A stretch of DNA of 64,000 bases from Marasmius tenuissimus. Lineage: Eukaryota; Basidiomycota; Agaricomycetes; Agaricales; Marasmiaceae. This document shows, piece by piece, positions 12,954 through 35,968 of the stretch; position 1 is the stretch's first letter, and the number at the start of each line of letters is the position of its first letter. The position numbers were made by a program, and so were the translations under genes. The stretch spans positions 1-64,000 of the forward strand of contig JAQOTA010000025.1 of the NCBI GenBank assembly GCA_029532415.1. Reading direction: 5' to 3'. Under the pieces are notes generated by a model. The model was not told where the DNA came from. It searched no databases and was given only the letters and a program-made list of their open reading frames with translations.

Positions 12954-13620
12954 ATTGGTGTTTTCACTCTCCTTTCCATTCTGGAAACTCATGCGCTTCA
13001 ACAGCGCCCGCAGAATCGTTAACTTATAGTTTTGATTAGAGAGTTACTCCCCCTCCTTTCATTCTCTCTCTCTCTGGCGGAAGGCCCTGTGGGTGGTTCA
13101 TCACAAAAAAATGCTGAGTTTTCACGTTTGTCGAAGTTTCTTGTTCGGGGGACCTCGGGGATGGGGGGTTGTCCCAAGGTGTATTAGGAAATAGGGAAAT
13201 TTAATCGTATACCGTAGTGAAGTCGAAGGATTTCAACATCCACTTGTATTATCTTTTCGTTCCGGCATTGGTTTTTGACACTGTAGCACATATTCACACA
13301 TACTTACATAGCATCAATATGACATTGTTTGTACTCTACTTTCGCGATGTGAAGACTGAAACTGAGGATTGCGCCGGGCGGGCGTCCGGATCCTGTGCGA
13401 TGCACGCGTCGTGACACAAAGACGGCGACCTCTCGATTCCTGAACCTGAATAGACTTTCCGATATCTCTAAAAACTCCTTGACTCGACTGGAGGTTTGTG
13501 CACTTGAAATATACGTCAGTCAGCAGACAAGTGGGCTTCTTTTTCTTTCTCAGGCGGCCTCGTGGCTGTTGTAACTCTTTCTTCAACCACCACTACGAAC
13601 TTTGAGATTTCTTTTGGACC
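12954..13620. other. MET6 3' region and TPR-gene promoter
   Basis: No gene is supported. It contains a CT microsatellite near 13065-13075 and, from 13239 on, sequence shared with the downstream duplication unit (33539-33884). Bases 12781-13238 are missing from that second unit. Confidence 0.6.
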
Positions 13621-15180
13621 ATGTCTCAAAATACCCGGGGCCGTGCGCAATCTCTGAAAGATGAAGGCAACAAACTCTTTATCGCGAAGAATTTCGATGC
13701 TGCAATGGGGAAGTACGACGAAGCCATCGCGCTCGATGATCGAAATCCAATTCTTTTCGCGAACCGGGCTGCTTGCAGACTGAGTCTAAGGAGGTATGGC
13801 TCTTCAGCTGGTCCTGGTTGGATTGCGATGCCTGACTTTGCGGGACGTAGATATATGGACGCGGTGGCTGATGCAGCCAAGGTATCAGACTTTTGTCAAA
13901 GTCACGTTTTCTCCAGGTTTAAATGCGTTTCGAATAGGCCACTGAGCTTGATCCGAACTATTCGAAAGCTTGGGCAAGGCTTGGAACCGCGTACGATGTT
14001 AGCCCAATTCTGATCTTCGCTCTGCCCGGTAATCGTTCAGCTGAACCCCCCTTTTTTATGGATTTGTTTGATAGGAACTCCGTCAGTTCGACCAAAGCGA
14101 GGAATATTGGAAAAAGGCTCTGGAGACGCTCCCGCGGGGAAATCTCACGGAGGCTGAACTCAAGCAGAAAGAACAGTACGAAAAGAACCATGCTGCTTCG
14201 AAGCGTTCCATGGAAGACATGAAGAACGAGGCGAAACATTGCGTATCGGGGACGACAGCTTGTCCCAAGAACCAGATGCCTGGAGTACGAGCTTTGGAGA
14301 TGAAAGCCCAATTGGAGCGTGAACGGAAGTACGATAGCAGTGTGGGTGTCGGACCTTTCCTCTTGATGTTATGCAGAACTCAACATCCGTTGTCTAGGCT
14401 TGGGCAATTGCCAGTGCATATGAGCAATTTCAGAAGGGGACGAAGCAAATGGACGACTTTAGGACCCATGGGCCCATGATGGCCATGTTCAACGTCCAAT
14501 CAATCGAAAACATTACCAATGCGGTTCTCTGCGACCGTCGCGTTCTTCAATGTACTGATAGTGCTTGGGTTGAAAAGGTCAGAAGACAAAGTATGTATTG
14601 CGGGGTCCGTGTGTCTGAAAATTTTCACTGATATTTTTTCAGTTCAAGGGGAGACAAGATGTACCGGAGCCTGGACGGAGGATGGGCCTGCGGCCCTTAT
14701 GCAAGAGGCAAACAACCGGCGAATTGAAAGAGGATGGGACCACGTTCGGCAAGCCGTTGGTACTACCATTCGGTATGGTACAAGATATGTCTTGAGAGTT
14801 TCATTTTAATCGCACCCACACAGCTGTTGGATTCTTTTCGGGATTCTGCACAGCCAAATGCAACACCACCACGTCGCCGCGCTCGAGCTCTACGGAAGAG
14901 CCCTCGAGGTTATGAGATGGGGCCGGAGGGAATGGAGTGGTATCTCCGCTGAGAATCGTGGGGTCATCTTTCTTGATTCGTTTATGCATAGCGTTCATAG
15001 TCTTTATCTGGATGCACTGGTACAGGTGCATTGTTCCTTCAAGTTTCTTCGGGCTCGTCTGGCTGATAGCTGTTGACCTAGATTGCTTCGAGCGAGAAGG
15101 ACGTTGGGAAGCTGGAACGTTTGGAAGAGCTTCAGGAAGAGGCGGTCAAAGTCATCAACAGTATCAATGGGAACCCGATA

Positions 15181-15185
15181 CCACC
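15181..15185 (+). repeat. Left target-site duplication of element 1 (ccacc)
   Basis: The same five bases are at 32189-32193. The undisturbed paralogue has a single ccacc at the matching exon-8 position. Confidence 0.9.
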
Positions 15186-15334
15186 TGTTGAGGCAGAGGT
15201 CCTGCCCACGCAGTGGCAGCATGGGACAGATTAGCTCACCTGGAGATAGGCTTAGAGGCAGCAACGAGAGCAGTAAAAGTACTAGTATTGCATGTAGATA
15301 CAGAGCTACTTATATACTATACAGAGGTGGCTGT
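15186..15334 (-). repeat. Element 1 left LTR, first part
   Basis: This part matches 31931-32079 of the right LTR. The LTR breaks off where element 2 inserted after gctgt (15330-15334) and resumes at 26251. Confidence 0.93.
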
Positions 15335-15853
15335 TGATGAGCCAGCATAGTTAAAGTGCACAGTGGGTATAACGAAGTAAACCTCACATGGGTAATACAC
15401 AGAGTGTTCTTGTAGTCTTGAGATGCTTGAGAAGAGGTGATAATCGAGTAGATTGTCCTAAGGCTTAAGGCCTTTCGTCCAGTCTTTTATACATAAGTTT
15501 CTGGTACATGTAATGAGTATTACACTAACTGAAACTACTACTAGATGTAGGTATTCGGCCCTAAAGGCGTAAAAGACATTAGTACTGTGTAAGTACTTCT
15601 ACCATGAATGGTAGTATGCTTGGTGAGCATAGTCGTGTTTGCCTCATGTATTGGAGACTCTACTTATGCTATTGGATAGCGACTGTCTATAGTGTCATTT
15701 ATGATGAAACTACTAGGTACGTAGTGAGATACGTAGACAGAGACGTAGTACTTGCATGAGGACGCAAGTGTTCTAGAGGCGTAGCTCTATAAATAGTGTG
15801 ACGTGTAAACAACATGTCAACAGTGTATCACATGATATCCATCATGTTCAACA
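15335..15853 (-). repeat. Element 2 left LTR (3' LTR in element orientation)
   Basis: 519 bp. Identical to 25727-26245 except two sites that are CG here and TG there (GATACGTAG versus GATATGTAG; GTGACGTG versus GTGATGTG). The adjoining purine tract in element orientation lies at 15854-15863. Confidence 0.95.
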
Positions 15854-16911
15854 CTCCCCCTCACTAAGTTCATCATGCGATCATGGAACTAGTGAAATGT
15901 CAATCCTAAAGATTGCCTGAACAATTCGAACTTTGTTCTGCCAAGATTCTTCGTAAGAAGATCAGCAGGTTGTTTAGCAGTTTCAACGAAATAGATTCGA
16001 GTCTTTCTGTGTTCCACTGCTTCCCTGATGAAATGATATCGATTGTCGATGTGTTTTGTTCTTTTATCAGTAGCTTCATTGCTGCTGAGAAAGATAGCGC
16101 CTTGGTTGTCGCTAACACATGGAACAGATCGAATAGGGAAGTTCAATTCGTTCAATAACGACTTCATCCAGCAAGCCTGACGTGTACAGTCAGATAGAGC
16201 CATATACTCTGCTTCCGTGGATGATAATGCAACCGTTTTCTGTTTCTGAGAGACCCAGCAAACTGGTGCATTGGCAAGCTTTACGATATATCCAGTCTGT
16301 GATCGACGATCATCTTTATCAGTTGCCCAATCAGAGTCAGCAAAGGCAAGTAGTCCTTGGTTGGATCTACCATCGTAAATGAGTTCATACTTTGCAGTGT
16401 GAACAAGGTATTTCACGATGTAAAGTGCCTTCTGGAGGTGTTCCTGATTAGGATTAGCTCCATACTGTGACATTTTGATTACAGCAAAGGATATGTCTGG
16501 TCTCGTTCCGAGAGCCAAATAAAGTAATGATCCGATAACTGATTGGAATCTATGCCTAATCTCGGGATTAACCTCCCCCTGGTTTTGGGTTGGGTTATAG
16601 CCTTCTGGCAAAGGCGTATATGCCGTCTTGGCGTTCAGAACTCCGAATTTACGAATTATCTTTTCAAGATAGTCTTGCTGATCAAGGATCAGTCTGCGAT
16701 TCTTCCGATCTCGAGTAATTCGCATTCGCAGAAATTCTGTTGGCTCGCCTAGATCTCGGCATTCCCAGATTTTCATGAATTCGCTTTTTAGTCTATTGAC
16801 AAGGTTGCGATCAGGACCCATGAATAAAGCATCGTCGACATAGACGACGGCAATGACCATATTGCCATTCTTGTTGAAGACATATACGCCAGCATCGGAT
16901 AAGCATCGTTT

Positions 16912-17097
16912 TGTTAGAATCGGGTATTGGGAGGAGCCATGGACAGGGCTCACAGGGACGAGGACGGCGGTTAGACGGACTCGGGACGACGACGATCGAC
17001 GACGATGGAAGGGAAAAAGATAGAATGTATTGATTACATACGCAGTACGGTATGAACAGTCCGGTTCCCGGACTCGGGCCGAGACCAAAATCTAACA
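16912..17097 (-). repeat. Element 3 left LTR
   Basis: 186 bp, identical base for base to 18459-18644. Confidence 0.95.
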
Positions 17098-17241
17098 CTC
17101 CCACCTGGTGAGGGCCGAGAAAGAATGAAAGGCTCCCACCGAATCAAAGAAACAAAGAACGGAGCAAAGGCTCCCACCGAAAAACTCAAACCAATACCAA
17201 CTGACAACCAACAACATCCAGTTGAAGTCCACAGCAGTCAC

Positions 17242-18339
17242 TCAAGTGTGAAGAGCGGGAAAGCTAGAACCAGATGAAGGAGACCCTGCTCGTGGGCGAC
17301 CAACAATATGGGCCTTGTAGCGGGGCTTGATATCCTTCTCCTCGATCATACTGATGGTGCCATCATGGGACCTGAAGTATACCCAGTTGGCACCAAAATC
17401 GGGGGCTGTAGCCTCCAGATCACCATTGAGGATGGCTTCAAGGACTTCAGGCGTGTGTTCCTGACCAGCGACGCTCGCCTGACCAGCAACTTCTGCCTGA
17501 TTACCAGAGCTCTCCTGGAGATCAGAACGTGGAGCTCCTCGGATGACCCAGTCCTTTACGTTCTGGGGCATGTCGTGTATGCAGCGATCTGCGATGTGTC
17601 CAACCAGTCCGCAACGCCGGCACTGATCTTCAGAAACCGCAGAGCACCACCGGAAACGCTGACCAGGTGGGGGACGAGACCCTCCAGCACTCCCACCGTA
17701 TCGCCCACCACCAGAAGATGGGTAGCCAGAGCGGGCTGCATTAGCAGACTCCTGCTTGATGGCGGGAACCTCCTCACCATCATTCTCGCCTGAGAGATCA
17801 GCTTTGGCAAGCATGACGTCCTTGACAGACTTGAGATCAGGATTACCAAGGCCATAGAGCTTGGCACGAGTCTCGAGATCGCGACATTGGGCAACCATGA
17901 GGCACATGACAGTCTCGTCGGGCTGAGGAACACCTAGGTCCTTGAGACGCTTTGCAGCAGACTCAATGCTCTGGATGTATGCGGAGACGGGGTAGTCGAG
18001 ATCGTGGGTGATGGATATGAAGGTCTTGTAGGCAGTAACCATGGCCTGAAAGTTCTTCGAGTCGAAGGAGTTACAGATCTTCTTCCACGAAGCAAGACCA
18101 GAAACCTCTTCTTCGATGAGGTAGCGATACTCGGGGTCGACAAGGTTTTCGAGGATGAAACAGAGCTCATCGTCGATCGGCTTCTTGCCGTCCGGGACTG
18201 CTTCAGCAAGCTCGGTAACGTAACCGGCATTGATAGCGTTGAAGAACTTGTGATAATAGATCTTCTGAACACGGAAATTTTCCGGAGTGAGCCTCTTCCG
18301 AGAACTGATGAGGGCAACGTGGGTGGGGTTGATGGTCAT
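17242..18339 (-). CDS. Gag protein of element 3
   Basis: Uninterrupted 365-codon frame. The N-terminal two thirds are helical and copia-Gag-like: WKKICNSFDSK followed by YPVSAYIQSIESAAKRLKDLG, the pattern of UBN2-type capsid domains. After a Gly/Ser/Pro-rich linker comes one zinc knuckle C-x2-C-x4-H-x4-C (CRRCGLVGHIADRC, near residues 240-253), which binds RNA in nucleocapsids. About 110 more residues follow the knuckle, ending after a Ser/Pro-rich tail; no protease DSG or DTG motif occurs. The Gags of elements 1 and 2 lack this knuckle, so they are unlikely to be the parents. The frame is intact and the LTRs identical, so the gene could still be expressed. Confidence 0.9.
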   Translation of the reverse strand: MTINPTHVALISSRKRLTPENFRVQKIYYHKFFNAINAGYVTELAEAVPDGKKPIDDELCFILENLVDPEYRYLIEEEVSGLASWKKICNSFDSKNFQAMVTAYKTFISITHDLDYPVSAYIQSIESAAKRLKDLGVPQPDETVMCLMVAQCRDLETRAKLYGLGNPDLKSVKDVMLAKADLSGENDGEEVPAIKQESANAARSGYPSSGGGRYGGSAGGSRPPPGQRFRWCSAVSEDQCRRCGLVGHIADRCIHDMPQNVKDWVIRGAPRSDLQESSGNQAEVAGQASVAGQEHTPEVLEAILNGDLEATAPDFGANWVYFRSHDGTISMIEEKDIKPRYKAHIVGRPRAGSPSSGSSFPALHT

Positions 18340-18444
18340 GATGGGGAAGGGTTTTTAACTGTTCGCACACGCCGACACAGAGAGAGAAAACCGGTGAAAA
18401 AGAGTGTGAATGGTGATTTTGACAGGAATAGGCGCTAAGGTGGC

Positions 18445-18458
18445 CGGGGCCCATAACC
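18445..18458 (-). other. Primer-binding site of element 3 (half-tRNA initiator Met type)
   Basis: In plus orientation GGGGCCCATAACC abuts the LTR start at 18459. It equals the anticodon-loop region of eukaryotic initiator tRNA-Met (GGGCCCATAACC), so the minus strand is complementary to the 3' end of a tRNA 5' half, as in Drosophila copia. Confidence 0.8.
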
Positions 18459-18644
18459 TGTTAGAATCGGGTATTGGGAGGAGCCATGGACAGGGCTCAC
18501 AGGGACGAGGACGGCGGTTAGACGGACTCGGGACGACGACGATCGACGACGATGGAAGGGAAAAAGATAGAATGTATTGATTACATACGCAGTACGGTAT
18601 GAACAGTCCGGTTCCCGGACTCGGGCCGAGACCAAAATCTAACA
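18459..18644 (-). repeat. Element 3 right LTR (5' LTR in element orientation)
   Basis: 186 bp, identical to 16912-17097, followed by the target duplication cgttt at 18645-18649. Confidence 0.95.
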
Positions 18645-21600
18645 CGTTTGAATCCCAGACGTTTCATGGATTCAGTACACTGACGCCACCAGGCACGAGA
18701 AGCCTGTTTTAATCCGTACAATGCTTTGCGTAACCTCCAAACCTTGCTGGAGTCCGTAACGAAGCCTTCTGGTTGTTCCATGTAGATCTCCTCATCTAAG
18801 GCACCATAAAGAAATGCTGTTTTAACGTCTAGCGCAGAGATCTCCCAATCTTCAAGCGCTGCTAGTGCCAATAGAAGTCGTACGGTTTCGAATCGTACTA
18901 CAGGAGAGAACAACTCGTTATAGTCTATCCCTTGTTTCTGCGAAAATCCTTTCGCAACAAGTCTTGCCTTCTTTCGGCCATCAGACTTGATGTCAAATAC
19001 CCAGCGGGATTTCACTGCTTTTCGGCCTTTGGGTAGTGTGACCACATCAAAGACGTTTCTATCTTTGAGTGATTGTAATTCCAGTCTGCATGCTGTTTCC
19101 CAAGATGGTCGTTCATCTTTAGGACGCTTCTGGACTTGTTTGTATGTCCATTCACGAACGTTATCATAACTACTGGCTTGAAGACCATATAGTTGATGAC
19201 CGTTATTCAGCAAGTAAACCAAGTAATTTTCTCCCCCTTGCTGAGCAAGATCGCTCATATCGTCATCCGTGTCCATAGGAGCGGCTGGATCAGGAACCCT
19301 ATTTGGTATTGTTTCAGGTTCATTTGTCGGATTAATCTGACTTTGCCAGCGTGCTTGAGAATCGATATCGCGTTCGATCTCAACAGGATGTCGATTTCCG
19401 TAAACATTAAACAGACGGTTGGGAGTTACTCTATTCCTTGGAGGGTTTCTTCTGACAGCTGCTGGTGGAGGAGCTCGTAAGTTCTCCCACTCATCATAGT
19501 CAGCTTGGCGAAATCCAAATGGATTTGTCGAACCAGAAGAACCAGCAGACCGTGGATCCGGACCATACTGATTAGGATTGTGATCGGAGCCTTTCGGTGA
19601 TCCGAATCCATCAGTATTTGGATGATTGCCGTTGTGCACATCATCGCTTTTATCATCCGGGACAGGATCCAAGGGAGGATCTCCTCCAGGTTGATGATCG
19701 TCATCATCTGATCCTGGTAGAGGTGGAGGATTAAAGAAATCATCATTATTGTGATGATCTTCATGGCCATCATATGGGTACGTTGGAAAGGGTATAGACC
19801 GGACAGGTTTGTCGGTTTTATCAAACTCTATGGATCCGGGCACTTCTTTCTGACATTTAGGAAACCAGTTCTCATCGAAAACTGCTTGTGGAGTAATGTA
19901 TACAGAACTGTTGGTTGTTCGAAAGAATCGATAAGCTTTTGATCCGCTCTCGTAACCAATGAAGATCATTGCTTCAGAGTGTGGAGCAAGCTTATTTTTA
20001 CGTTTCGGTATGTATGCATATGCGCCACATCCGAACGTCCTGAAGTATGAAACATCAGGCTTCTTATTTTCAAACAATTCAACTGGAGTTCTGTATTTCC
20101 TCAAACGAATAGGAGTTCTATTGTAGATATGGACGGCTGTGAGAATTGCAAATTCCCACCAGTTTTCAGGCGCACAAGCCTGAAAGCGCATGGCTTCAGA
20201 TTTTTCTCGTAGTGTACGATTAAATCTTTCTGCTCGTCCATTCTGTTCATGCACGTTGGGAGAACCTCTTTGTGGAAATATTCCTAGAGAGTTATACCAG
20301 TCCCATTGTTCATTTGAAAAGAATTCTCCCCCTCGATCGAAATGCATATGTTTGACCTTTTTATTAGTCTGGCGCTCTACAAGAGCTAGCCAATTGCGCA
20401 ATTTCTGATCTGTATTGCTCTTTTTACGAATTGGATATACCCATCCGTATGATGTTGCATCATCGAATAAGGTTAAAGCATATTCGTTTTGATAGTAAGA
20501 GCGAGTTGGATATTCTATCAAATCTCCGTGCACGAGTTCAAGAGGCTCCTTAGCTCGTTTTGAGGATAAAGGGTACGATTTAGCAACCATTTTGCCTTTG
20601 GCACATCCTCAGCATGGTTTCGTTTCTCCCTTCGAAGTAACCAACTTCATTGGAAGCCCTTTAACATTATCCATTAATTTTCCTAAGACTCTGGGATCAC
20701 AGTGTCCCATACGTCTATGCCATAATTCAGAAGTATTGAAAGATACAACAGATGTGAAGGAAGTTTCTCCCACAAGAACCTTCGCGTTCATCCATCGTAA
20801 AGGATCATCTTTATGGCTTGGGTAAAAGCTCATTAAAAGAGAACCATCTTTCTTGCTCCGGATCAAAGTCTCTGGAGAGTCCAGTAAAGTATAGTATCCT
20901 ATACTCCGGAACTTCCCACTAGAGATTAAACGATGTGGGCTGTCGGGATTATACATCACTGGGTATAACTTTGTGACTTGTGTCACTCCTGCGCTATTGG
21001 TGTGTCGGATGAGGACAGTACCATAGCCTACTATTTGCACATTTGCTTTATCACCCGCTGATGTAGTAAGACCTATTGGCATTTCCAAGGTCTGATAGTC
21101 TGAGAAATCCGTTTTATACGGAGTCATATGCGCTGATGCCCCACTATCAAGTAGCCAGGCATTTCGCGTATTTCTCACTTCACAATCACTCGAAAATGCA
21201 GCAGAAAACGACTTATATTTCGTCGTTGCATATACAGAAGTAATACTACATTTCCTTGGTACTGAGTTCCTTAGGATATGATAGTTCTGCATTGAGGATT
21301 TAGTGAAAGTTTGACTATTAGAACTTTGAAAAACTTGCCAGTCTCCACGATCGTTGCTTTCAGCCCAATCATTATCAACTCCTTCAAGGCCATCTCCATA
21401 GTCACCATCATCAAAGTACCGTTCATGCCATTGAAGCGGTTCTTGATTCTGACTTTGGAATGTTTGACGAACAAGATGTTCTCGACTTGTTCTGAGTTCT
21501 TCTTGATAACGTTGATTAGCGGCCTCTTCAACTTCTATCCAAGCCTCCAATTGGCGTCTATAGTTCTGCCACTGAACGAATCTCGTGGCTTGATATGGCT

Positions 21601-24600
21601 GATTGTTATTGACAACCAAAGTGATATTGCCAATACTTGTGCCATCAGCAACATGTAAAGGCGGTCCATTGGTCCTTAGTCCAATTACTGCAGGTCCGTA
21701 ATTCTCAAATTGAGAGTTTCGGGGATCACTTGGAGATGTAACCCAAGGGTCAACCTCAGGTTGTTCATCTACCGGACTAAGTCTTTCCGGTTGATCTGGT
21801 GGAGCAGTAGTTGGGCGAGAAGGTACATCAATGTAATCATCCTCTAAGGATTGTACGCCATAAAAAGATTCGGGAGAGCTTGGAGGAGTGTGGACGATTT
21901 GGTCCTGCCATTGTCGTACTCGAGGTGGTGTAGTTGCGGGGCGATTTATGTATTCATGGGTAGTAGGGACTGGAGATTTGGAACGATTAAGTGACTCGGC
22001 TAATTCCATGAAATCTCCAGGGTATGTTCTTGGTCGTTCATTGAAGCGACTACCCTCAAGTTCTCTTCGAGGAATATCAGCCTGAGTCATGGGAACAGAC
22101 ATTCTAATGTTGTTCATCCATTTGTACAAGTGCGTATGCCAATTATGAACATCCTGAAGACTGAGGTGAGGGATGAAGCGAACCCAGCGCCTATTAAACC
22201 CTGGTTGTCTCCATTGAGATGTTCTAAATTGACTCGCTCTTATGTCTGTCGTTCCAAATAACCATTTCCCTTCAAGACCAAGCTTGACTAACGAATGCCA
22301 GAAGATAGGATTCATCACTTGTACAGGAAGTGTGAAGTTCTTCTTGTTGACTCGGAAGGCTTCATCCACCGAAGTTGAACGAGGATTTTTCACTCGTTGA
22401 ACAAAATCTTCAACGGTGCTGATCCAATTTTTATTATTGATTTCAGCTATAACCGTCGATAGGTGTTGAAGGTTCCAGGTTTGGTATTCGTAATGAAGCG
22501 TGAACTTGGTATCTTCTACTGTTTCCACATGTAATATCCTTTGTTGTATGCGCAATTCATGAAGAGCTTGACGAGGTGTCATGTTATGCACTGCATCTCT
22601 TCTAATAGCATACATAACGACATATTCTCTGGTCTTGATCAGAATCCAGATCCAAAGATTGTGGTCTGGTATACTGCGTATTAATTTATAACGCATTCTG
22701 ATCATGGATTCCTTTAGTGCTATGTCGTTAGTTGTCTGATCTCCGAAGTCTCGGAATTCTTCGACAACAGGAATTGGGAGTCTAATCCCGTTTATTATAT
22801 GTGGTCTATTATTCCTAAGGTTAACTCGTCGCATCATGTTGTCATGTTGTTCTTTGTATTCTTGTAAGAATCGCCATTCAACTTTTCTATTGATGAGAGG
22901 TGGCTCTTTTATGTCATCTCCATCTTGAGAATAGTTTTCTGGTCTGAACAAATGAACAAAATCGGCGTGGTTCCTAGGAAACATAGAATTTGCCCATGGT
23001 CCATAATCGTCAGGAGGTGTTGAAACAGTTACACGTATGTCTTCTTGTGTGGGTGATGCTACTTCGAGATTCTCACCTTGGTCAACTTCGTCCGCAGGCG
23101 AAGTATGATTAGGTGTCGCCTCTCGTCGTGGCATTGTGAAGATGATTTCTTCATTACTATGCGCGCCATAAGAGTATTCAGAACATGTATGACTATCATT
23201 TGATGAATTATCAGATGAAGAGTCACTATCAGGTTCTGTCGGAGTATCAGAGATGTACACCAAAGATGGTATCTCATCTCCATCGCTGTCTATGTTTGAA
23301 TTGGAAATTGTAGCTGAAGCGATAGCTTCTTCTACTTGTCGAACTTGTTCATCTAGTTGAATAGTTCGTCTATTGTTCCATTCTTGAACAGAGATGTGTC
23401 GTACAGGACGACCTTCTCTATCAGCAGCGATTCTCTCTTCTAGGCGTGCCTGTTGAAGATCATACGTGTTTTGGAACGGGTTTGGTGCAGATGTGCTACC
23501 GGTGGGGTAGTGGTAGGACATATGAACGTTTACTGGCCCAGCCATTTCGCGTTCAAAAACTGAGCTAATTTGCTCGTTTACTGCATTGATTCGTTTCTGG
23601 TATTCAGAAGGTTTCTCAGAAGGTTCAAGTACCGCAGTGTGCGATTGTTGCCCTCCTTTTTGAGTATCCTTCTTCTTTCCTTTGCCTTTTCCTTTGCCCT
23701 TTCCTCCTTTCTTCTTTCCTTTCTTGGAAGAAGATCCACCTTGGTTCTGATTGTTCTGGTTCTGATTATTGTTTTTATTATTGTTCTTCTTTTGATTTGT
23801 AGAATTACCAGAACGAGACTGATCAGACCATTTAGGAGGAGAGTTAAATCTATTAACACCAGAAATTTTGGCGTTATGGGCAGTATAGGCAGCAGGACCA
23901 GAATGAATCCCATTCCTTCTATTCCATTCATTCGTTATTGCAGCAATCAAATCGGTAGGTTTGAGTTCTTCCTTCTTCATACGGGATACTTGCTGCTTAA
24001 AGAGCTGCCAGCGCTTTTCATTAAGCTTGGCTGTGATCATTAAGCACAGCAAATCGTCCGAAATATCTACTCCATGATCCTTAAGTTGATCCCGAACAGT
24101 CAACATGTAACTGATTCCGGGGACTGGATTAAGGTGTTCAGGAAGTTGGACGTTATGCAAGTCCGTATATAGATTCATCATCTTTGAAGAAGACTGAACC
24201 CCAAACGTAGATTTGAGTTTAGATAAGGTTGAGACTACCGAAGTTTTATCAACATGCGCGTCGTGAGCACGACGAGTTCGCATTTTGATAATACCAATTA
24301 CTTTGTTACGCCTTGAAGTCCACTCAGCTAGAGCGGTAGCTTCTCCTGAAGTAGCAGGAGAAGATGTTTCAGGCATTTCTTCATCCAAGGCTTGAGGTAT
24401 GCCTTGGGTAAAGAGGTAACCTTCAAGTAATCGAAACCAATCTTCAAAGTTCGAACCATCATCTAGCAAAACTGGAATGATACTAATTCCTCCTGACCCA
24501 GCAGGAAAGTTGCTGTCCGCAACCTGAGAGTACAACGGTTCCGTATTGTAGTTATAAACTTCTACAGAATTTTCCACTTCCGTTCCTAGAGTATATCCCG

Positions 24601-24715
24601 GCGTATTGCGAACAAACGTCGTTGGAGGATTACCACTTGGGGAATGAGAAGCAGACCTTGATCCTGATTGAGACATATTGAGGTCTGCCAAAAGTCCCGT
24701 GAGCATACTCTTCAA

Positions 24716-25713
24716 ATATAGAAGGGTGGAGCCAAGAGAGTGTCAATCGACGAAGGCTTCTAAGAAGCACCCATAAATAAATAGGGTTTGATGCACACCG
24801 AGAAATGCTCCAAAGGTCTAGGACTTTTAACAGGCTGTATGCGTCAAGCAGATCATGGGGTGTACCACGTGCAGGTAGTGCAGGGGAGTTAATCTGGCTA
24901 CGAAGCCCTGCCCAATTGCTAGGGTCTTACAACGTTCCCAGTGTGTATCGGTGTCTGGTGTCCCATCATGCTATCTGGTCTCAACCCCAGACTAGCAAAA
25001 GTATGAGTGATCAGCTCATACTGTCCGAATGACCCATTGAAAGTTATTATTAAACCTAGTCATTCATATGAATTGAGTTCATGCACCCTCTGCCTTAGGC
25101 ATGTCGGTGACCAGAAAGCAATCATAGGTGAGCTAGAGTTTAACAATAACGTAGAAGAGAGGGGTCATCGGGAAGGGAGTCCCTGTACATACTAAAGTGG
25201 CCATGTGATACCGTAAAACTGTATAGTATCAAAACCTAGTTGTAAGGAGATCAAATCTCCCAGCATGTATTTCATGCCCGGTCTTTCGACCGTCAGGAAT
25301 CATGGCGAGTTGGTTTATAAGCACAACCCCATAGACCCCTAAACGATGCCTCATGGTGAGGATCATCGCCAACCATTGGTTTTCATCGGCATTAGGCAGT
25401 GATAATATAAGATCAAAGCCCAATCCGGGTTATCAGCAGGGAGACAGAGCCGCTTACGCGGATAGGTCTATGCCGAAGAAAATGAAGCCAAGACAGTATG
25501 TACATGTGTTCGTGCAACATGCAACAGTACAGGGACGTAGTGGATAGGTGTAAAGGGAACTAACAACCCTTGACCTTGACACCAGACGATGACAAGCCCG
25601 ACATCACTAGAGACTTCCATAACCCATGTAGGTTACAGGTCGTCCGCTAGGATGGTGGCGACACACGGGAGCTAGGCTACTCCGATCATAACATCGACCT
25701 GACCACCGCTTGC
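24716..25713 (-). other. Long untranslated leader of element 2
   Basis: Between the primer-binding site and the gag start lie about 1,000 bp with only very short open frames. Element 1 has about 315 bp and element 3 about 105 bp at the equivalent place. It may hold packaging or dimerisation signals; no specific motif is recognised. Confidence 0.6.
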
Positions 25714-25726
25714 GGGGCCCATAACC
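25714..25726 (-). other. Primer-binding site of element 2 (half-tRNA initiator Met type)
   Basis: GGGGCCCATAACC in plus orientation directly against the LTR start at 25727, the same 13 bases as in elements 1 and 3. Confidence 0.8.
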
Positions 25727-26245
25727 TGATGAGCCAGCATAGTTAAAGTGCACAGTGGGTATAACGAAGTAAACCTCACATGGGTAATACACAGAGTGTT
25801 CTTGTAGTCTTGAGATGCTTGAGAAGAGGTGATAATCGAGTAGATTGTCCTAAGGCTTAAGGCCTTTCGTCCAGTCTTTTATACATAAGTTTCTGGTACA
25901 TGTAATGAGTATTACACTAACTGAAACTACTACTAGATGTAGGTATTCGGCCCTAAAGGCGTAAAAGACATTAGTACTGTGTAAGTACTTCTACCATGAA
26001 TGGTAGTATGCTTGGTGAGCATAGTCGTGTTTGCCTCATGTATTGGAGACTCTACTTATGCTATTGGATAGCGACTGTCTATAGTGTCATTTATGATGAA
26101 ACTACTAGGTACGTAGTGAGATATGTAGACAGAGACGTAGTACTTGCATGAGGACGCAAGTGTTCTAGAGGCGTAGCTCTATAAATAGTGTGATGTGTAA
26201 ACAACATGTCAACAGTGTATCACATGATATCCATCATGTTCAACA
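25727..26245 (-). repeat. Element 2 right LTR (5' LTR in element orientation)
   Basis: 519 bp, partner of 15335-15853, with TpG at the two sites where the left copy has CpG. Target duplication gctgt follows at 26246-26250. Confidence 0.95.
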
Positions 26246-26250
26246 GCTGT

Positions 26251-26359
26251 AGCTACTATAACAGGAGTGACTAGGAATAGCATAGATCATAGTGAAACGA
26301 TTGAAGCATATATGCGGCCCGATACAACGGTCCATATATCCGGTAGTCTGGATTCAACA
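26251..26359 (-). repeat. Element 1 left LTR, second part
   Basis: 109 bp matching 32080-32188 of the right LTR with two differences, both C/T at CpG. The polypurine tract (CTCCCCCTCGC in plus orientation) follows at 26360. Confidence 0.93.
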
Positions 26360-26433
26360 CTCCCCCTCGCTAAGTGCAGCACAAGTAGAGCACGAAGTGT
26401 CTATTCGGACGAATAAAATTCAAGTCCAAGATG

Positions 26434-29400
26434 TTATCTAAAAGCGGAGAACTTGACATGACCCAAATTCTTGGTAAACATGTCTGCAGGATTGTAGGCA
26501 CCGTCAATAAAGAAAAGATCGACCTTGCAGTCTGAAACACATTCGCGAATGTAGTGATAGCGAATATCGATGTGTTTGGTGCGACGTTCTTGAACTGGGT
26601 TAGAGGCGATGAAAATCGAGCCTTGATTATCTCCACATATGGGTACGGGAGTCATATCAATCCCAAGTTCAGAAAGTAACTGTCAAATCCACACAGCCTG
26701 ACGACTACAGTCGGATAGCGCCATGTATTCAGCTTCAGTGGATGAAAGCGCAACAGTCTTCTGGGCGTGTGATTGCCAACAGAAGATGCCACCTGCCAAT
26801 TTGAAGAAATAGCCCGTGATCGACCGACGCTTGATAGGATCAGCAGCCCAATCAGAATCAGTGAATGCTAGTAAACCTCCGTCAGAGGCTCCATCATAGA
26901 CCAATGCATAGTCTGGAGTTCCTGCAAGATAGTGACAAATATAAAGCGCCTTCTTCAGGTGATCTTCTGATGGATTAGCAGAGAATTGAGAAAGCTTTGT
27001 AACAGCGTAGGCAATATCTGGACGAGTGCCAAGCATGATATACAGAAGTGATCCAATCACTGATTGATATCGAGCGCGACGTTCAGGATCAACAGGACCT
27101 TCGTTGGGTTGTGGAATATAGCCGGCAGGAAGAGGAGTATCAGTTGCTTTTGCATTCTGCATGCCAAATCGCTTCAAGACCTTCTTTAAGTAGTCGGTCT
27201 GGTCAAGAAGGATTTTACGGCCTTTGCGACGAATACGCATGCACAAGAACTCTTTAACTTCTCCAGGATCACGGCATTCCCAACGAGCCATAAACTCGGC
27301 TTTCTTCTTTTCGACAAAGGCTTTGTTTGGTCCAAGGAATAATGCATCGTCGACATAGATCAAAGCAATACATTCTTCACCAGTCTCACGATCTTTGCAG
27401 ATGAAGAGACCTGCATCGGAAGTTAAGCGTTTAAAGCCCATTACTTCCATGGACGAGCTGAGGGCACGCCACCACTCAAGAGCAGCTTGCTTCAGTCCAT
27501 ATAATGCACGGCGAAGGCAATAGACTTTGCCTTCCTGACCCTTAACCTTGAAACCTTCAGGTTGATCCATATAGATCTCTTCTTTAAGTTCACCATAAAG
27601 GAAGGCGTTCTTCACATCCAATGCCTGAATGTGCCAGTTTTTGAGAGCTGCTAGTGCGAGCATCATCCGTACAGTTTCAAACCGCACAACTGGTGAGAAG
27701 ATCTCATCAAAGTCAACACCTTCGACCTGAGAGAAACCCTTGGCAACAAGTCGAGCTTTCTTTTGACTGTCTGACTTAACGTCAAACACCCATCTGTTTT
27801 TGACAGCCTTGCGACCTTTAGGTAGGTCAACCAATTCGAAGACCTTGCGCTTGCGAAGAGCCTCTAGTTCATCGCGGCAAGCGGCCTTCCATTCTCTCTG
27901 CTGCTCAGCTGGCAGCTTCAGTATGTCACGGAGAGTCCACTCTCGAACGTTAGACATATCGGTGAGGTCATCGTGAACAGGAACTGCCCAATTTAACAGA
28001 TAAATCACGAAACCTACTCCCCCTTCCTGGGATAATTGTTGCACTAAGCTATCGGGCTGACTCCCCCTGGAGTTACACATGGTAGACAGACTGGCACGAT
28101 TAGTCCCAGGAACTTTTCTGGGTCTGCCTTTCCTACGAGTAGTAGGTGGATCCATGGGTTCTCTATCACCCGTGGCATCCCTCCATGTAGAATTTTTCTC
28201 CATATCACGCACAATGCGCGAGGGATTATTTGGGTCTTGTTGTTCACCAAATACATTATCAGGTTGCTTAGTACCCGTCCGTTTCCTGCCTGAACGCCTT
28301 GGCGGCGGAGACTGCTCTTTACCACCCACAGGTGTAGGTGGCCTGGGAGGCTGGAACGGAGGATCAGGATCAGAGTGTTGACGTTCACGCTGAGGTACAG
28401 TACCATCTCCATCATCGTCATGAGGAGATTCCGATCGCTTTGGAAGGTTATCGGGAGGATAAAGATCGTCATCAGACGAATCATCATCACTATCCGAAGA
28501 GAAGTTGGGATTTTCACCCAATACCGGCGGTATTTCTGGGATTTCATTCACCGGGGTAAAGCCATGCGGTTTCTTATCAGAACACTTCGGGAACAAATTT
28601 TCATCGAACAGAGCAGTAGCGCTTTTGAAGATAGCATTATTGGACATCTTCATGAAGACATATCCTTTCATGCCCTCCTGAAAACCGATGAAGGTCATCA
28701 GTTCCGAACGCGGAGATAACTTGTTAACTCGACGTTTTTCTGGAATAAACGCATACGCTGCACATCCAAAGACTCGAAGATCCGAAACATCCGGTGCACT
28801 GCCATGCAACTTCTCATGCGGGGTCAACCAACGTAAACGCTGGGACGGCATCCGATTGTGAAGTGCAACAGCGTGCAACACATAGAATTCCCACCAAGAA
28901 GGTGGAAGACAAGCATCAAAGCGAAGAGCTTGAGCTTTCTCGACAATGGTCCGATTGAACTGTTCTGCACGACCATTCTGTTCCGGCGTGTATGGAATGC
29001 TGGTCAGAATTTTGATACCGTGCTGTTTTAGTACATCATCGAAAGCATCCGATTTGTACTCTCCCCCTCCATCGGACATCCATTCCTTAATATCAACACC
29101 GAATTGTACCTTCACCATAGCGATAAAGTCACGGAGCATCTTGACAGAGTCAGATTTGCGTCGCATGAGCATTGTCCAGCCATGTGAAGTACAGTCGTCG
29201 ACAAACAACATATACCATTTGTATTTGTGGTACGACTCAGTGGGGAATTGTTTGAGGTCGGAGTGGATTTTCTCAAAGGGTTTCGAGGCACGGGTAGTGG
29301 AGTCAGGGAACGATCTGGAGTGTATTTTTCCTTCTGCACATCCTCGGCATAACCGGGTTTTCTTCGGTTTTCGGTCGAATTCCGGGAAGTTCTTAGTATG

Positions 29401-31602
29401 CTTCCGAGCTTTATCCAGAGCTTTGTCTGAACAATGTCTGAAACGTCTGTGTAGAACTTTGTAGTCAACTTTATCCATAGTTGACTTGGCCATTAAGCTG
29501 CGAGCAGAGGCTTTCTGCGAGCTAACCCAAAAAATGGTTTGACCAGGCATAAGCAGGTAAGATACCAATGATTGGCGTTGACCCTTTTGGTAAAAAGCCA
29601 ATTTGCTAGACGATCCGCGTACTTGCAGACCACCTTGCAAGAATTCTCCAAGCGAGAGAAGTCAAATTGACAGAAGTGGAACATAATAGACAGGATAGAG
29701 TCGCGTAATGCGTTCCTCCATGCGACCGTCAGATCCTTCAACAGAATGAGAGATGAACACAGTCCCTTTCCCCTTAATTTGGATAGGGTTGTCCTTCTGT
29801 GCAGTGTTAAGCTGCGGTCCATTGTTCATAGGTTCATACTCGGCAAAATCTTCGAGATCATAAGTGAAGTGCGATGAGGCACCCGAATCGACGATCCACT
29901 CTTGCGAGCTTCCAGTCGCCTTCTTTCCCTTACAATTGGCACATGTGGCAAAGTGATCACCAATATATTGCGCAAATTTCATACGGGACACGATATTCGA
30001 ACTACTACGTTTAGAAGCAGCTAGTAAAGCGGCGCACTGTAGGTTCGTATCAGTGTTAGAAGAAAGACTGAGATAAGGCACTTGCCTGTCATCGTCAGAT
30101 TCCCCAGATCCGATGGAGACCGAATCGTACTCAACATCATCGGAAAAACCAGCGGCATCTGCAATCTCGCTGTCAACGTCCATGGCACTTCCACTCGCAA
30201 TCTCCGTACGCAAAGAATCATTAACAGCGTTCAACGCGATACGATCCTCACGCTCAGAGTCGGAGTCCTCATAGAAAGAATCATAGAGGTCGTAAACCTT
30301 CTCAACGCTCTTAGCACGCTTTGCAGGTGGAGCAGTGGAGAAGGGACCATCAATACGATGCTTGAGGGAGGAAGAGGAAGCAGCCGCATATCCCTGTTCC
30401 ATTGGTTCAAGGACATGGGCATACTTGGGAACACCAAGACGATCGGCAAGACTGCGAGCAGCCTGAGCATTCTCAAAAACAGTACCACCAGAGGTAGCAC
30501 CGGAGAAACACTGCATGTGGAGTGGATCCCGGGATCGGTCTGCGGGATGTACAACAGATGGAGTATCAGGAACGATGGGGGGTGAGGAGATGGACAAATG
30601 AGAGAGGGACGCGATATGAGAATGACCCTTGTGAGAGGAGTCACCCTTGTTGTCCTGAGAATCACCCTTCTTCTTCCTGCCACGTCGGTTGTTCTTCTTC
30701 TTCTGGTCGTTGTCGTTCTTAGACTGGTTGTTATTGTTAGACGACAACGAAGGAGGATTAGACTGTTGGTTAAACTTTGGGTCCTTGTCCTTCTTTTTGA
30801 CAGAAGAAATGCGCGACGCGAGAGGAGCGGGTTTCCGAGCTTCGTAGTGGTTAATGACAGCATCACAAGCCACTTCGAAAGTAAGATCAGCTGGCAAGTT
30901 ACCATTGGTAGCAAATTCGCGAGCGTTCGACCAGCCCTGTGGTAGAACGGAGAGGAGGAGCATGGCTTTGATAAGATCAGAGAGACCGATATCGGCTTCA
31001 TGGAGCTGTCCAAAAAGGAGTTCGAGTCGAGCTATTTCAGGAATGGGGTTACCACCAGACAGACGGAATTCCATAATGGACTTGAAGTCCGCCCAAACAG
31101 AGACAGAAGTCTGTTGGCCATAACGAGCCTTAATCTTCTCCCAAGCATTCCAAGCCATATCATCATCCTCGATAACACTCTGCACGGCAATGGTGGTGGT
31201 GGCACGTAGTGCACCCATGGCTTTGAATTCATACTTCTTCCAACGTCGATGATCCTTCTCATGCCTGAGAAGATCCTTCTCGTACCTTTCCAAAGCCTTA
31301 GCATACTGCTCAAGATCAGTAGTGTACTGCTGCATCTGCGCGTCAGTAGGAGAGACGGTCTCCGTACGTGTAGTTGCTTCAGTTGTAGTTGTAGCAGCAA
31401 TAGTGACAGTGCAAGTAGTTGCTTTAGGTTTGGTCGGTTCTTAAGGTTTCTCGGGTGCATCAGGTTCAGGATCGTCGTTGGTGTAGTGGTCGTAGAACTC
31501 GTTGATCATGGCATAGGTACCAAGACCCTTGGACCACTTGCGCCAGTTGACACCACTGAAGACCTCAACGGTAGGGATAAGGGTAGACATAACAGGAGCC
31601 AT
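26434..31602 (-). pseudogene. Gag-pol polyprotein of element 1 (three in-frame stops)
   Basis: One minus-strand frame of about 1,720 codons broken by TAA at 31441-31443, TGA at 29662-29664 and TGA at 26683-26685, with no frameshift. Start is taken at 31602 (MAPVMSTLIPTVEVFSG). Order: Gag with VNWRKWSKGL; basic Asn/Lys-rich segment; C-x2-C remnant and protease DSGAS near residue 572; pre-integrase with RRFRHCSD and CRGCAEGK; integrase with HSDLKQFP, SDGGGEYK and NGRAEQFNRT; RT with YVDDALF near residue 1416; RNase H with DSDWAAD, SSTEAEYMALSDC and TKHIDIRYHYIRE. Normal copia length and order. At both TGA codons an Arg (CGA) is a plausible ancestor. It probably cannot make full polyprotein. Confidence 0.92.
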
Positions 31603-31917
31603 AGCGATCTGGAGTAATAAAACAATGATCAGCATATGTTCATCATCATAGGCAATGATAAAAGAAATCACTGCACGGTCAACGGCGATAGCCATCGATC
31701 GTTGTTGAGGACACAGTCCACCATCGTCAAACATCAATGAAGATGTCGACTTCACAGGTCCAGAACCGGTGTTAACGGTCTGCCCATCACGACAACAATT
31801 AAGCAGTCACAATGGTTATCGAGTGCAACGACCACAACAGCGCATCATCATAGGCAGCACACAATAAAGGTGCACATCCTAGAGAGCTGCCATCGCAGGG
31901 CACATCGACAGGGCACC

Positions 31918-31930
31918 GGGGCCCATAACC
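31918..31930 (-). other. Primer-binding site of element 1 (half-tRNA initiator Met type)
   Basis: GGGGCCCATAACC in plus orientation directly against the LTR start at 31931; identical to the sites of elements 2 and 3. Confidence 0.8.
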
Positions 31931-32188
31931 TTTTGAGGCAGAGGTCCTGCCCATGCAGTGGCAGCATGGGACAGATTAGCTCACCTGGAGATAGGCTTAG
32001 AGGCAGCAACGAGAGCAGTAAAAGTACTAGTATTGCATGTAGATACAGAGCTACTTATATACTATACAGAGGTGGCTGTAGCTACTATAACAGGAGTGAC
32101 TAGGAATAGCATAGATCATAGTGAAATGATTGAAGCATATATGCGGCCCGATACAACGGTCCATATATCCGGTAGTCCGGATTCAACA
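31931..32188 (-). repeat. Element 1 right LTR (5' LTR in element orientation)
   Basis: 258 bp. Differs from the rejoined left LTR at four sites: TTTTG versus TGTTG at the tip and three C/T changes at CpG. Target duplication ccacc follows at 32189-32193. Confidence 0.95.
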
Positions 32189-32720
32189 CCACCTCGAGAG
32201 AGCGATCCTTCCTTCTCGGCAGCATACTATTACTATCCCAGGGGCTATGCTTATTCGTGAGTTGCTGCGGCGCAGACATCTTGATAGGGATAGTAACCGG
32301 ATTCTCAATGCCATTTTCATCAGTATGAAAGGGCTTTACTACCGAGAGAAGGCAGGACTCACAACGGATCGAGCTGAAGCCAAACGCTTGATGCGAGAAG
32401 CTGGCAAAGCTTATATGTCTGCCTCCGAGAACTTTTCTGAGGACGACGAACTTTATGCTTGTGCGTGGTCGATTCAAACGTTCGATCCATTCGAGAACTG
32501 ACATGTCTTTCCACTAGGGAACATGTCGATCGCACTGGACAACATGGTACGAGGATCCGGACCTCCTCATGACTCGATGGATTGCATGACAAAGGTCAAG
32601 GCTGCTCTGCCCAAAATCCAGAAGATATGGGGAAAGTCTGCGCTGGTGCTGCGGGGAAGGGATGCTTTGATCCAGACGCAATTCAAACACGAAGCAGCTA
32701 TTCGTCGCCAATTAGCCTGA

Positions 32721-33538: not shown

Positions 33539-33884
33539 TCCACTTGTATTATCTTTTCGTTGAGGCATTGGTTTTTGACATTGTAGCACATATTCACACA
33601 TACCTACATAGCATCAATATACTCTACATTTGGGACTTGAGGACTGAAATTGAGGATCGCGGTGAGCACGGTGTACGCGTCGCGACCCGAGGACGGTGAC
33701 CTCTCGATTTCCGAACTTTCCGACGCTTCAAGAGCCTCCTTCAAGATTAGACTGGAGGTTTGTGTATTTGAAATGTACGTCAGTCAGCAAGCGGGGTTCT
33801 TTGTCTCTCAGGCGGCAGCCTCGTGGCTGTTGTGTTTCTTTCTTCAACCACCACCACCACCACGAACTCTAAAATTTCTCAACT

Positions 33885-35968
33885 ATGTCTCAAGATGCAC
33901 GGGGCCGTGTAGAGTCCTTGAAAGATGAAGGCAACAAACTCTTTATCGCGAAGAAATTCGATGCTGCGATTAGCAAGTACAGTGAAGCCATCGCACTCGA
34001 TGATCAAAATCCAATTCTTTTTGCAAACCGGGCTGCTTGCAGGCTGAGTCTAAGGAGGTATGGTTCTCCAGCTGGTCTTTGTTGGTAGAATGAAGTGACT
34101 GAATTTGCGCTCGTAGGTATATGGACGCAGCGACTGATGCAGCCAAGGTATAAGATTTTATCAAAGTCATGTCGTTTTCAGGTTCAAACGCGTTTCGAAT
34201 AGGCCACTCAGCTCGATCCGAACTATTCAAAAGCTTGGGCAAGGCTTGGAACCGCGTACGATGTCAGTCTGTCTTTGAACTGCGCTCTGTCCGGTGATCG
34301 TTCAGCTGAAACCCACTTACGGATTTGCTGGACAGGAACTTCGCCAGTTCAATCAAAGCGAGAAATGTTGGAACAGGGCTTTGGAGACGCTTCCGCGGGA
34401 AAATCTCACAGAGGCTGAACTCAAGCAGAAAGAACAGTACGAAAAGAACTACGCTGCTTCGAAGCGTTCCATGGAAGACATGAAGAACGAGGTGAACGAT
34501 CGCGTAATGAGGACGACAGCTGGTCCCAACAACCAGATGCCTTCGGTACGAGCTTCAGAGATGGTAGCCCAATTGAGACGTGAACGGAAATATGATAGCA
34601 GTGTGAGTGTCGGACCTTTCTTCTCGACCCTGTGCAAAACTCAACTTCCGCTATCTAGGCTTGGGCAATTGCCAGTGCATATGATCAGTTTCAGGAGGGG
34701 ACGAGGCAAATGGATGACGTTAGGACCCAAGGGATGATGGCCATGTTCAACCTCCAATCGATCGAAAACATGACCAATGCAATTCTCTGCGACCGTCGCG
34801 TTCTTCAGTACGCTGATAGTGCTTGGGTTAACAAGGTCAATAGACAAAGTACGTATTATGGGACCCGTATATTGAGAAAACTCACTGATCTGTTCCCAGT
34901 ACGAGGGGAGACAGCATGTACCGGAGCCTGGACGGATGCTGGGCCTGCGGCCCTCATGCAAGAGGCAAACAACCGGCGAGTTGAAAGAGGATGGGACCAC
35001 GTTCGGCAAGCCGTTGGTACTACCATTCGGTATGGTACAAAATATGTCTTGAGAGTTTCGTGTTAATCGCTCTCATACAGCTGCTGGATTCTTTTCGGGC
35101 ATCTCCAAGGCGGATTGAACCAAAACCCAGTTACCGAACTCGAGTTCTTGGGAAGAGCCCTCGAGGTTATGAGATGGGGCCGGAGGGAATGGAGCGGTAT
35201 CTCCACTGAGAATCGTGGGGTCATCTTTCTTGATTCGTTCATGCATGGTGTTCAAAATCTCCACATGGAAGCACTGATGAAGGTGCGTCGTTTCTTCAAG
35301 TTTCTTCGGGCTCGTCTCGGCTTATAGTTGTTGACCTAGGTTGCTTCGCGCGAGAGGGACGTCGGGAAGAAGCTGCAGCGTTTGGAAGAGCTTCAGGAAG
35401 AGGCGGTCAAAGTCATCAACAGTATCAATGGGAACCCGATACCACCTCGAGAGAGCGATCCTTCCTTCTCGGCAGCATACTATTACTATCCCAGGGGCTA
35501 TGCTTATTCGTGGGTCACCGCGGACGTTTTAATAGGGATAGTAACCGGATTCTCACTGCCATTTTTGTTAGTATGAAAGGGTTTTACTACCGAGAGAAAG
35601 CAAAACTCACAACGGATCAAGCTGAAGCCAAACGTTTGATGCGAGAAGCTGGCAAAGCTTATATGTCTGCCTCCGAGAACTTTTCTGAGGATGACGAACA
35701 TCATGCTTGTGCGTGGTCGATTCAAACTTCCGATCCATTCGAGAACTGACATGTCTCTCCACTAGGGTTCATATCGATCGCACTGGACAACATGGTATTA
35801 GGATCTGGACCTCCTCGTGACTCGATGGATTGCTTGACGAAGCTTAAGGCTGCTCTGCCCAAGATCCAGAAGATATGGGCAAAGTCCGCGATGGCGCTGC
35901 AGGGAAGGGATGCTATGATCCAGACGCAATTTAAACACGAAGCGGCTATCCGTCGAGAGCTAGCCTGA
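33885..35968 (+). CDS. TPR-repeat protein, intact downstream copy
   Basis: Ten exons (33885-34057, 34117-34147, 34203-34262, 34336-34602, 34659-34848, 34900-35029, 35081-35282, 35340-35509, 35536-35708, 35766-35968) join in phase to 532 residues. Residues about 10-110 form an STI1/SGT-type TPR array: LKDEGNKLFIAKKFDAAISK, NPILFANRAACRLSLRRY, LDPNYSKAWARLGTAYDELR. Arrays of this kind often hold Hsp70 or Hsp90 C-terminal tails; the partner here is unknown. Later parts have no domain I recognise: a Lys/Glu-rich linker, WDHVRQAVGTTIR, a conserved RALEVMRWGRREW, a Tyr-rich YYYYPRGYAYS and a helical C-terminus. No signal peptide or membrane segment. It probably supplies the function lost in the upstream copy. 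Confidence 0.8.

What the first reader, a model, noticed from the sequence alone, without database searches (positions are those of the whole stretch)
16912..18644. Young gag-only LTR element (TR-GAG-like) with identical LTRs
The 1.7-kb element has intact LTRs, primer-binding site, purine tract and an uninterrupted CCHC Gag frame, but no enzymes. Gag-only elements are named in plants (TR-GAG); I do not know of a described basidiomycete family. Its Gag has a zinc knuckle that the Gags of elements 1 and 2 lack, so its enzyme donor is likely a third family elsewhere. Selection to keep Gag would imply cis-packaging of its own RNA.
Basis: partly seen in the sequence, partly recalled or inferred. 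Interest (0 to 1): 0.75.

Follow-up and report, generated by a model that had tools for sequence, protein, structure and literature searches.

The report
Gag-only Copia retrotransposon in a fungus
A short jumping gene in what appears to be a mushroom-type fungus carries only the gene for its protein shell and must borrow its copying enzymes, yet that shell gene is kept intact by selection, which suggests that the shell serves its own RNA.

Summary
Window 16912-18644 (sense on the minus strand) is a 1733-bp LTR element: identical 186-bp LTRs, 5-bp TSD, PBS, PPT, one intact 365-aa Copia-type Gag (PF14223, one CCHC knuckle, predicted Copia capsid fold), no enzymes. It sits inside the reverse transcriptase of a Copia element.

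Seven places were found in the genome: 3 full copies and 4 solo LTRs, each with its own TSD. LTR pairs are identical within each copy, but the copies differ at 13 Gag sites, 12 of them synonymous (expected fraction 0.32, P about 1e-5). So the lineage kept Gag while replicating. A second gag-only family shows the same (15 of 22 synonymous); a third is a decayed relative.

Stand-alone Gags of this kind occur in Marasmius oreades (58% identical end to end) and Mycena. No Gag-Pol relative was found in the genome or among larger database proteins, which argues against a chance deletion. The PBS matches the spliced initiator tRNA-Met anticodon arm, as in both Copia elements of the window and hundreds of other sites. 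The enzyme donor was not identified; cis-packaging is inferred. It works like a plant TR-GAG element.

The parts
16907..16911 (.). target site duplication CGTTT, left copy
   Evidence: flank comparison
16912..17097 (-). 3' LTR, 186 bp, TGTTAG..CTAACA
   Evidence: identical to the other LTR
17098..17106 (-). polypurine tract AGGTGGGAG next to the 3' LTR; GTGGGAG-type motifs recur upstream
   Evidence: sequence; motif recurrence (D2)
17107..17241 (-). 3' untranslated stretch, no room for pol
17242..18339 (-). Gag ORF, 365 aa plus stop; 12 of 13 variable sites among 3 copies synonymous
17581..17622 (-). CCHC zinc knuckle CRRCGLVGHIADRC, inside the block WCS.....QCRRCG..GH....C..DMP..VKDWV..G.P whose letters are invariant in 10 aligned relatives
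17782..18312 (-). predicted two-lobed capsid domain (Gag residues about 10-186), closest to the Drosophila Copia capsid
18340..18444 (-). 5' leader between PBS and Gag
18445..18458 (-). primer binding site GGTTATGGGCCCCG, complementary to the spliced anticodon arm of an initiator-like tRNA-Met
18459..18644 (-). 5' LTR, 186 bp
18645..18649 (.). target site duplication CGTTT, right copy
15335..26245 (-). host Copia element 1 (519-bp LTRs 15335-15853 and 25727-26245, 99.6% identical); the gag-only element splits its RVT_2 domain

Best explanation
This is a non-autonomous Copia-type LTR retrotransposon that encodes only its capsid protein (Gag). Proposed cycle: the LTR drives an RNA that is both the Gag mRNA and the genome. 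Gag assembles a Copia-like capsid and, through its zinc knuckle, prefers the RNA it was translated from. Reverse transcriptase and integrase of a resident autonomous Copia element are taken into the particle in trans. Synthesis is primed by the 5' half of initiator tRNA-Met, and integration leaves a 5-bp duplication. Shown here: the anatomy, the TSDs, several independent insertions, complementarity of the PBS to the spliced tRNA, a predicted capsid fold, purifying selection on Gag, and related stand-alone Gag proteins in other mushroom genera. Inferred: enzymes in trans, the identity of the donor, use of a half-tRNA, and cis preference. Cis preference is the simplest reason for selection on Gag, because with freely shared Gag a broken copy would move equally well and the frame would decay.
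Confidence: 0.8

Rival explanations
1. Chance recent internal deletion of an autonomous Copia element, spread a few times while the parent supplied everything.
For: Small copy number (3 full); the PBS is the same as in full Copia elements.
Against: No Gag-Pol relative in the genome or among larger database proteins. Related stand-alone Gag proteins in Marasmius and Mycena. Synonymous excess across lineages that mostly diverged before insertion.
Confidence: 0.05
2. Gag donor in a mutualistic pair: the element supplies Gag, in bulk or of a special type, to an autonomous Copia partner as proposed for RLG_Quinta and RLG_Cereba in wheat; selection comes through the partner's success and not through cis-packaging.
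For: Wheat precedent (PMC11302176, passages read). The two Copia elements in the window have no CCHC motif of the standard spacing while this Gag has one.
Against: Shared benefit is a weak selective force at copy level (reasoning). No pol-bearing element with a homologous LTR was found. In the loci held, the profile of this Gag family scores no autonomous Gag better than E 0.005 (L014).
Confidence: 0.2
3. The family is the Gag half of a two-part element whose pol is encoded by a separate, gag-less LTR element with related ends.
For: A gag-less partner is known in barley (BARE-2, cited). An element fragment on C22 shares the exact LTR end and PBS, GATTCTAACA-GGTTATGGGCCCC.
Against: The body of that element could not be recovered and only its terminus and PBS clearly match.
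Confidence: 0.1
4. Domesticated Gag gene of the host.
For: Intact, selected Gag frame.
Against: LTRs, PBS, PPT and a different TSD at every place; in the window it lies inside a transposon.
Confidence: 0.02

Closest known systems
TR-GAG elements of plants (Chaparro et al. 2015, not held; cited in PMC8704663, where AT5TE33540 of Arabidopsis is reported to transpose in ddm1)
   Same: Short LTR element with a single Gag ORF and no pol.
   Different: In Arabidopsis the TR-GAG is highly similar to a potentially autonomous element; here no Gag-Pol relative was found, and the host appears to be a fungus.
RLG_Quinta / RLG_Cereba pair of wheat (PMC11302176, passages)
   Same: Gag kept for a long time without RT and INT; PBS shared with autonomous elements.
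   Different: Identified partner with identical LTR termini and a related Gag; Quinta also encodes a domain of unknown function. Here no partner identified.
Gag-only Copia families of the brown alga Ectocarpus (PMC12477816, passages)
   Same: Copia family with a single gag-like ORF.
RLG_Sabrina_SA and RLG_WHAM semi-autonomous elements of wheat (PMC9744471, passages)
   Same: Gag retained, RT and INT absent.
   Different: They also carry a protease, are Gypsy, and exist in thousands of copies.
Drosophila copia
   Same: Best structural match of the capsid and best PDB sequence match of the profile (8vvw, E 0.0088). Priming by a 5' half of initiator tRNA-Met is recalled for copia.
   Different: Autonomous Gag-Pol element.

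Membership tests
TR-GAG (terminal-repeat retrotransposon with GAG domain) | two LTRs with TSD | tested here: met
TR-GAG (terminal-repeat retrotransposon with GAG domain) | PBS and PPT present | tested here: met
TR-GAG (terminal-repeat retrotransposon with GAG domain) | single Gag ORF, no PR, IN, RT, RH | tested here: met
TR-GAG (terminal-repeat retrotransposon with GAG domain) | more than one insertion (mobile as such) | tested here: met
   3 full copies with different TSDs
TR-GAG (terminal-repeat retrotransposon with GAG domain) | plant host, as described | tested here: not met
   host inferred: the nearest named Gag is from the fungus Marasmius oreades; the host species itself was not identified. 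It works like a TR-GAG but is not filed among the plant families
Copia superfamily (Ty1/copia, Pseudoviridae) | Copia-type Gag / capsid fold | tested here: met
Copia superfamily (Ty1/copia, Pseudoviridae) | integrase before reverse transcriptase in pol | not testable with these tools
   no pol is present
Copia superfamily (Ty1/copia, Pseudoviridae) | PBS complementary to an internal part of tRNA-iMet and 5-bp TSD, as in copia (recalled) | tested here: met
   use of a half-tRNA itself is not shown
Autonomous/non-autonomous pair of the Quinta-Cereba type | partner with same PBS, LTR termini and PPT | tested here: inconclusive
   PBS shared by many; similar tips in element 2-type LTRs, TGTTGAA..CTCAACA; no partner with homologous LTR found
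TRIM | no coding capacity | tested here: not met
   selected Gag ORF

The most novel reading that the evidence does not exclude
A capsid-only retroelement lineage that has persisted across mushroom genera (this fungus, Marasmius, Mycena) as an independent replicator: its Gag has no known Gag-Pol counterpart, is kept because each RNA must be packaged by its own capsid, and the element hires enzymes from whatever unrelated Copia element shares the tRNA primer and LTR tips.
Probability: 0.4. Interest if true: 0.8.

Novelty: new variant of a known kind. Interest (0 to 1): 0.6.

Why it matters
Gag-only LTR elements are described in plants and a brown alga, in the cases read here with a recognisable autonomous relative. 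A fungal lineage with an orphan Gag that is still under selection makes a concrete question testable in a small genome: does capsid protein act in cis on its own RNA while enzymes are shared? It also suggests that some proteins of agaric fungi now named only hypothetical or CCHC-type domain-containing may belong to mobile elements.

Tried and rejected
Enzyme donor by LTR: the element as DNA query finds only 7 places. Donor by LTR end plus PBS: 4 exact places, 3 of them this element and one on C22. The C22 lead has a 188-bp LTR (by eye), with a solo LTR of the same kind on C28 (L073), but its body is interrupted and was not recovered. Pattern AACANNGGTTATGGGCCC was written wrongly by me (two extra N) and says nothing. 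The alignment set one copy in the wrong orientation; one search replaces it. Viral contigs: 38 pattern matches, no relative.

Other gag-only loci: of the 30 PF14223 loci held (L011-L040), 5 had direct repeats over 60 bp; L012, L013 and L024 are gag-only; L021 has an ORF that I read as integrase-like (no family search) and was dropped; L016 (63 bp) was not followed up. The PF14223 search scored only 150 of 501 candidates, so this is no census. F4 (L072) is LTR-flanked but has no Gag that I could find.

Host species: not identified. Site preference: flanking ORFs listed for the 6 other places, not interpreted. Rfam and the ARAGORN tool gave no tRNA; ARAGORN with introns allowed did.

Literature: the library holds open-licence papers only. 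In the listings I saw no gag-only LTR family of fungi. Lists were whole (12; 9; 0; 2), and cut (10 of 12; 12 of 13; 12 of 381; 12 of 552; 12 of 1326). For most papers I saw only the title and the start of the abstract. Passages, not whole texts, were read of PMC9674265 (Marasmius oreades transposons; no occurrence of gag or copia in its main text), PMC12477816, PMC8704663, PMC10067951, PMC11302176 and PMC9744471.

Full report
What is there. The element at 16912-18644 reads on the minus strand: 5' LTR 18644-18459, PBS 18458-18445, leader, Gag 18339-17242, 3' stretch, purine tract 17106-17098, 3' LTR 17097-16912. The LTRs are 186 bp and identical; the repeat finder reports 187 because the next base agrees by chance. 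TSD is CGTTT. It lies in the reverse transcriptase of Copia element 1: the two RVT_2 pieces on either side match profile positions 2-144 and 149-242. Element 1 (LTRs 99.6% identical) itself lies in the 3' LTR of element 2. So there are three nested insertions, and the gag-only one is the latest.

Copies. In the genome (71 Mb, 70 contigs, unnamed) 7 places were found: 3 full copies (C57, C32, C19) and 4 solo LTRs. Each has a perfect 5-bp TSD of its own: CGTTT, TTATA, GAATC, GGCAG, GATAT, GTATT, TTTTT (I read the duplications from the flanks printed). Three solo LTRs are 99-100% identical to those of the full copies; the fourth is 95%. Searching with Gag finds the same 3 full copies and nothing else at E up to 0.001.

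Age and selection. In each of the 3 copies both LTRs are identical. Between copies the LTRs differ at 1, 1 and 2 sites and each difference is in both LTRs of its copy, so it was copied during reverse transcription. Counting LTR differences as post-insertion changes would predict 4 within-pair differences; 0 are seen (P=0.018). A second estimate, from the synonymous divergence, predicts about 18. The Gag frames differ at 13 sites, all transitions, 12 synonymous; random transitions in this gene are synonymous in 0.324 of cases, P=1.2e-5 with each copy in turn as background. 8 of the 13 sites are part of a CpG in at least one copy; for CpG transitions alone the synonymous fraction is 0.333-0.344 and P 1.7e-5 to 2.5e-5, so CpG mutation does not explain the excess. 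The single replacement (I against T) is in the window copy.

Relatives elsewhere. One search found 3 proteins, one of them the window's own; the alignment search found 10 in all. The M. oreades protein is 359 aa, 58% identical over the full length, with the same end. The letters of WCS.....QCRRCG..GH....C..DMP..VKDWV..G.P are invariant in all 10. With the candidate length raised (about 520-1660 aa by the tool's 0.55-1.75 rule for the 947-letter query), 5736 candidates gave none at E up to 0.01. A Gag-Pol protein as similar as the Mycena metata Gag (E 9e-32) should have been seen if it shares words with the query. The genomic surroundings of the outside proteins could not be read.

Other gag-only elements in this genome. 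F2: L012 and L013, 355-bp LTRs AGTC..GACT (no difference within L012, one within L013), TSDs GGATG and CAGTG, 279-aa Gag with two knuckles. The copies differ at 22 Gag sites, 15 synonymous against 6.7 expected, reached in 3 of 20000 simulations. As DNA query F2 gives 40 scored matches of 97 candidates: 2 full, and more than 20 at 89% or more that cover LTR only. In that list no two matches are spaced like the ends of a 4-10 kb element; the one close pair, on C23, is F4. F3: on C30, about 1.56 kb, 143-base LTR match 93.7% identical, TSD GTCTT, PBS with one change, Gag decayed but hit by the A2 profile at 3e-19. F4: L072, identical 342-bp LTRs about 70% like F2, no Gag seen: a TRIM-like form. 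F1 and F3 share Gag ancestry and a PBS, and both end in a GTGGGAG tract; their LTRs do not align convincingly. F2 Gag is also hit weakly by the A2 profile (4e-11 and 7e-12).

Primer. GGTTATGGGCCCCG is the reverse complement of CGGGGCCCATAACC. In the two initiator-like tRNA-Met genes examined, of 12 pattern places, this stretch is broken by a 15- or 30-base intron in the anticodon loop; none of the 12 places shows it unbroken, so the PBS fits the spliced tRNA. That the gene is the initiator rests on the A1-U72 pair and the ATCGAAAC T-loop, a recalled rule. Both Copia elements in the window have the same 14 bases, and CAGGTTATGGGCCC occurs 444 times against 2 for the reversed control.

Mechanism. 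The data fit an element that makes its own capsid and borrows enzymes. Selection on Gag in two families says that Gag of the copy matters to that copy, which I read as cis preference (about 0.6 by itself). The mutualist reading, as in wheat Quinta and Cereba, remains open. The donor is unknown; element 2-type LTRs (TGTTGAA..CTCAACA, same PBS) have similar tips and are plausible.

Against my reading. Few copies; no donor; no expression; low-confidence model outside the capsid; outside relatives seen as proteins only; the own-genome searches score only the best candidates; the host is taken to be a mushroom-type fungus from its nearest protein relatives, not identified.

Noticed in passing
L012 967-2815 and L013 967-2815 (C30, C35): Second gag-only family with LTRs AGTC..GACT instead of TG..CA, two zinc knuckles, and more than 20 LTR-only matches; the stretch after its 5' LTR does not match the initiator tRNA PBS.
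   Followed up: partly
L072 (C23:2385600-2387420): LTR element without a visible Gag, identical 342-bp LTRs related to those of the gag-bearing F2 family; five listed places share the 3' internal part at about 70%.
   Followed up: partly
L075, L076 and 10 more places, 11 of the 12 on contig C10 at 4.62-5.13 Mb: A cluster of initiator-like tRNA-Met genes; the two read have introns of 15 and 30 bases in the anticodon loop, and the three bases after CATA vary among the 12.
   Followed up: partly
window 15183-32189: Nested insertions: element 1 sits in the 3' LTR of element 2, the gag-only element in element 1.
   Followed up: yes
window 13239-15186 and 33539-35447: Long direct repeat, 83% identical, flanking the nest, not explained.
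   Followed up: no
L031, L033-L040: Copia Gag loci without any CX2CX4HX4C motif in the stretch held.
   Followed up: no
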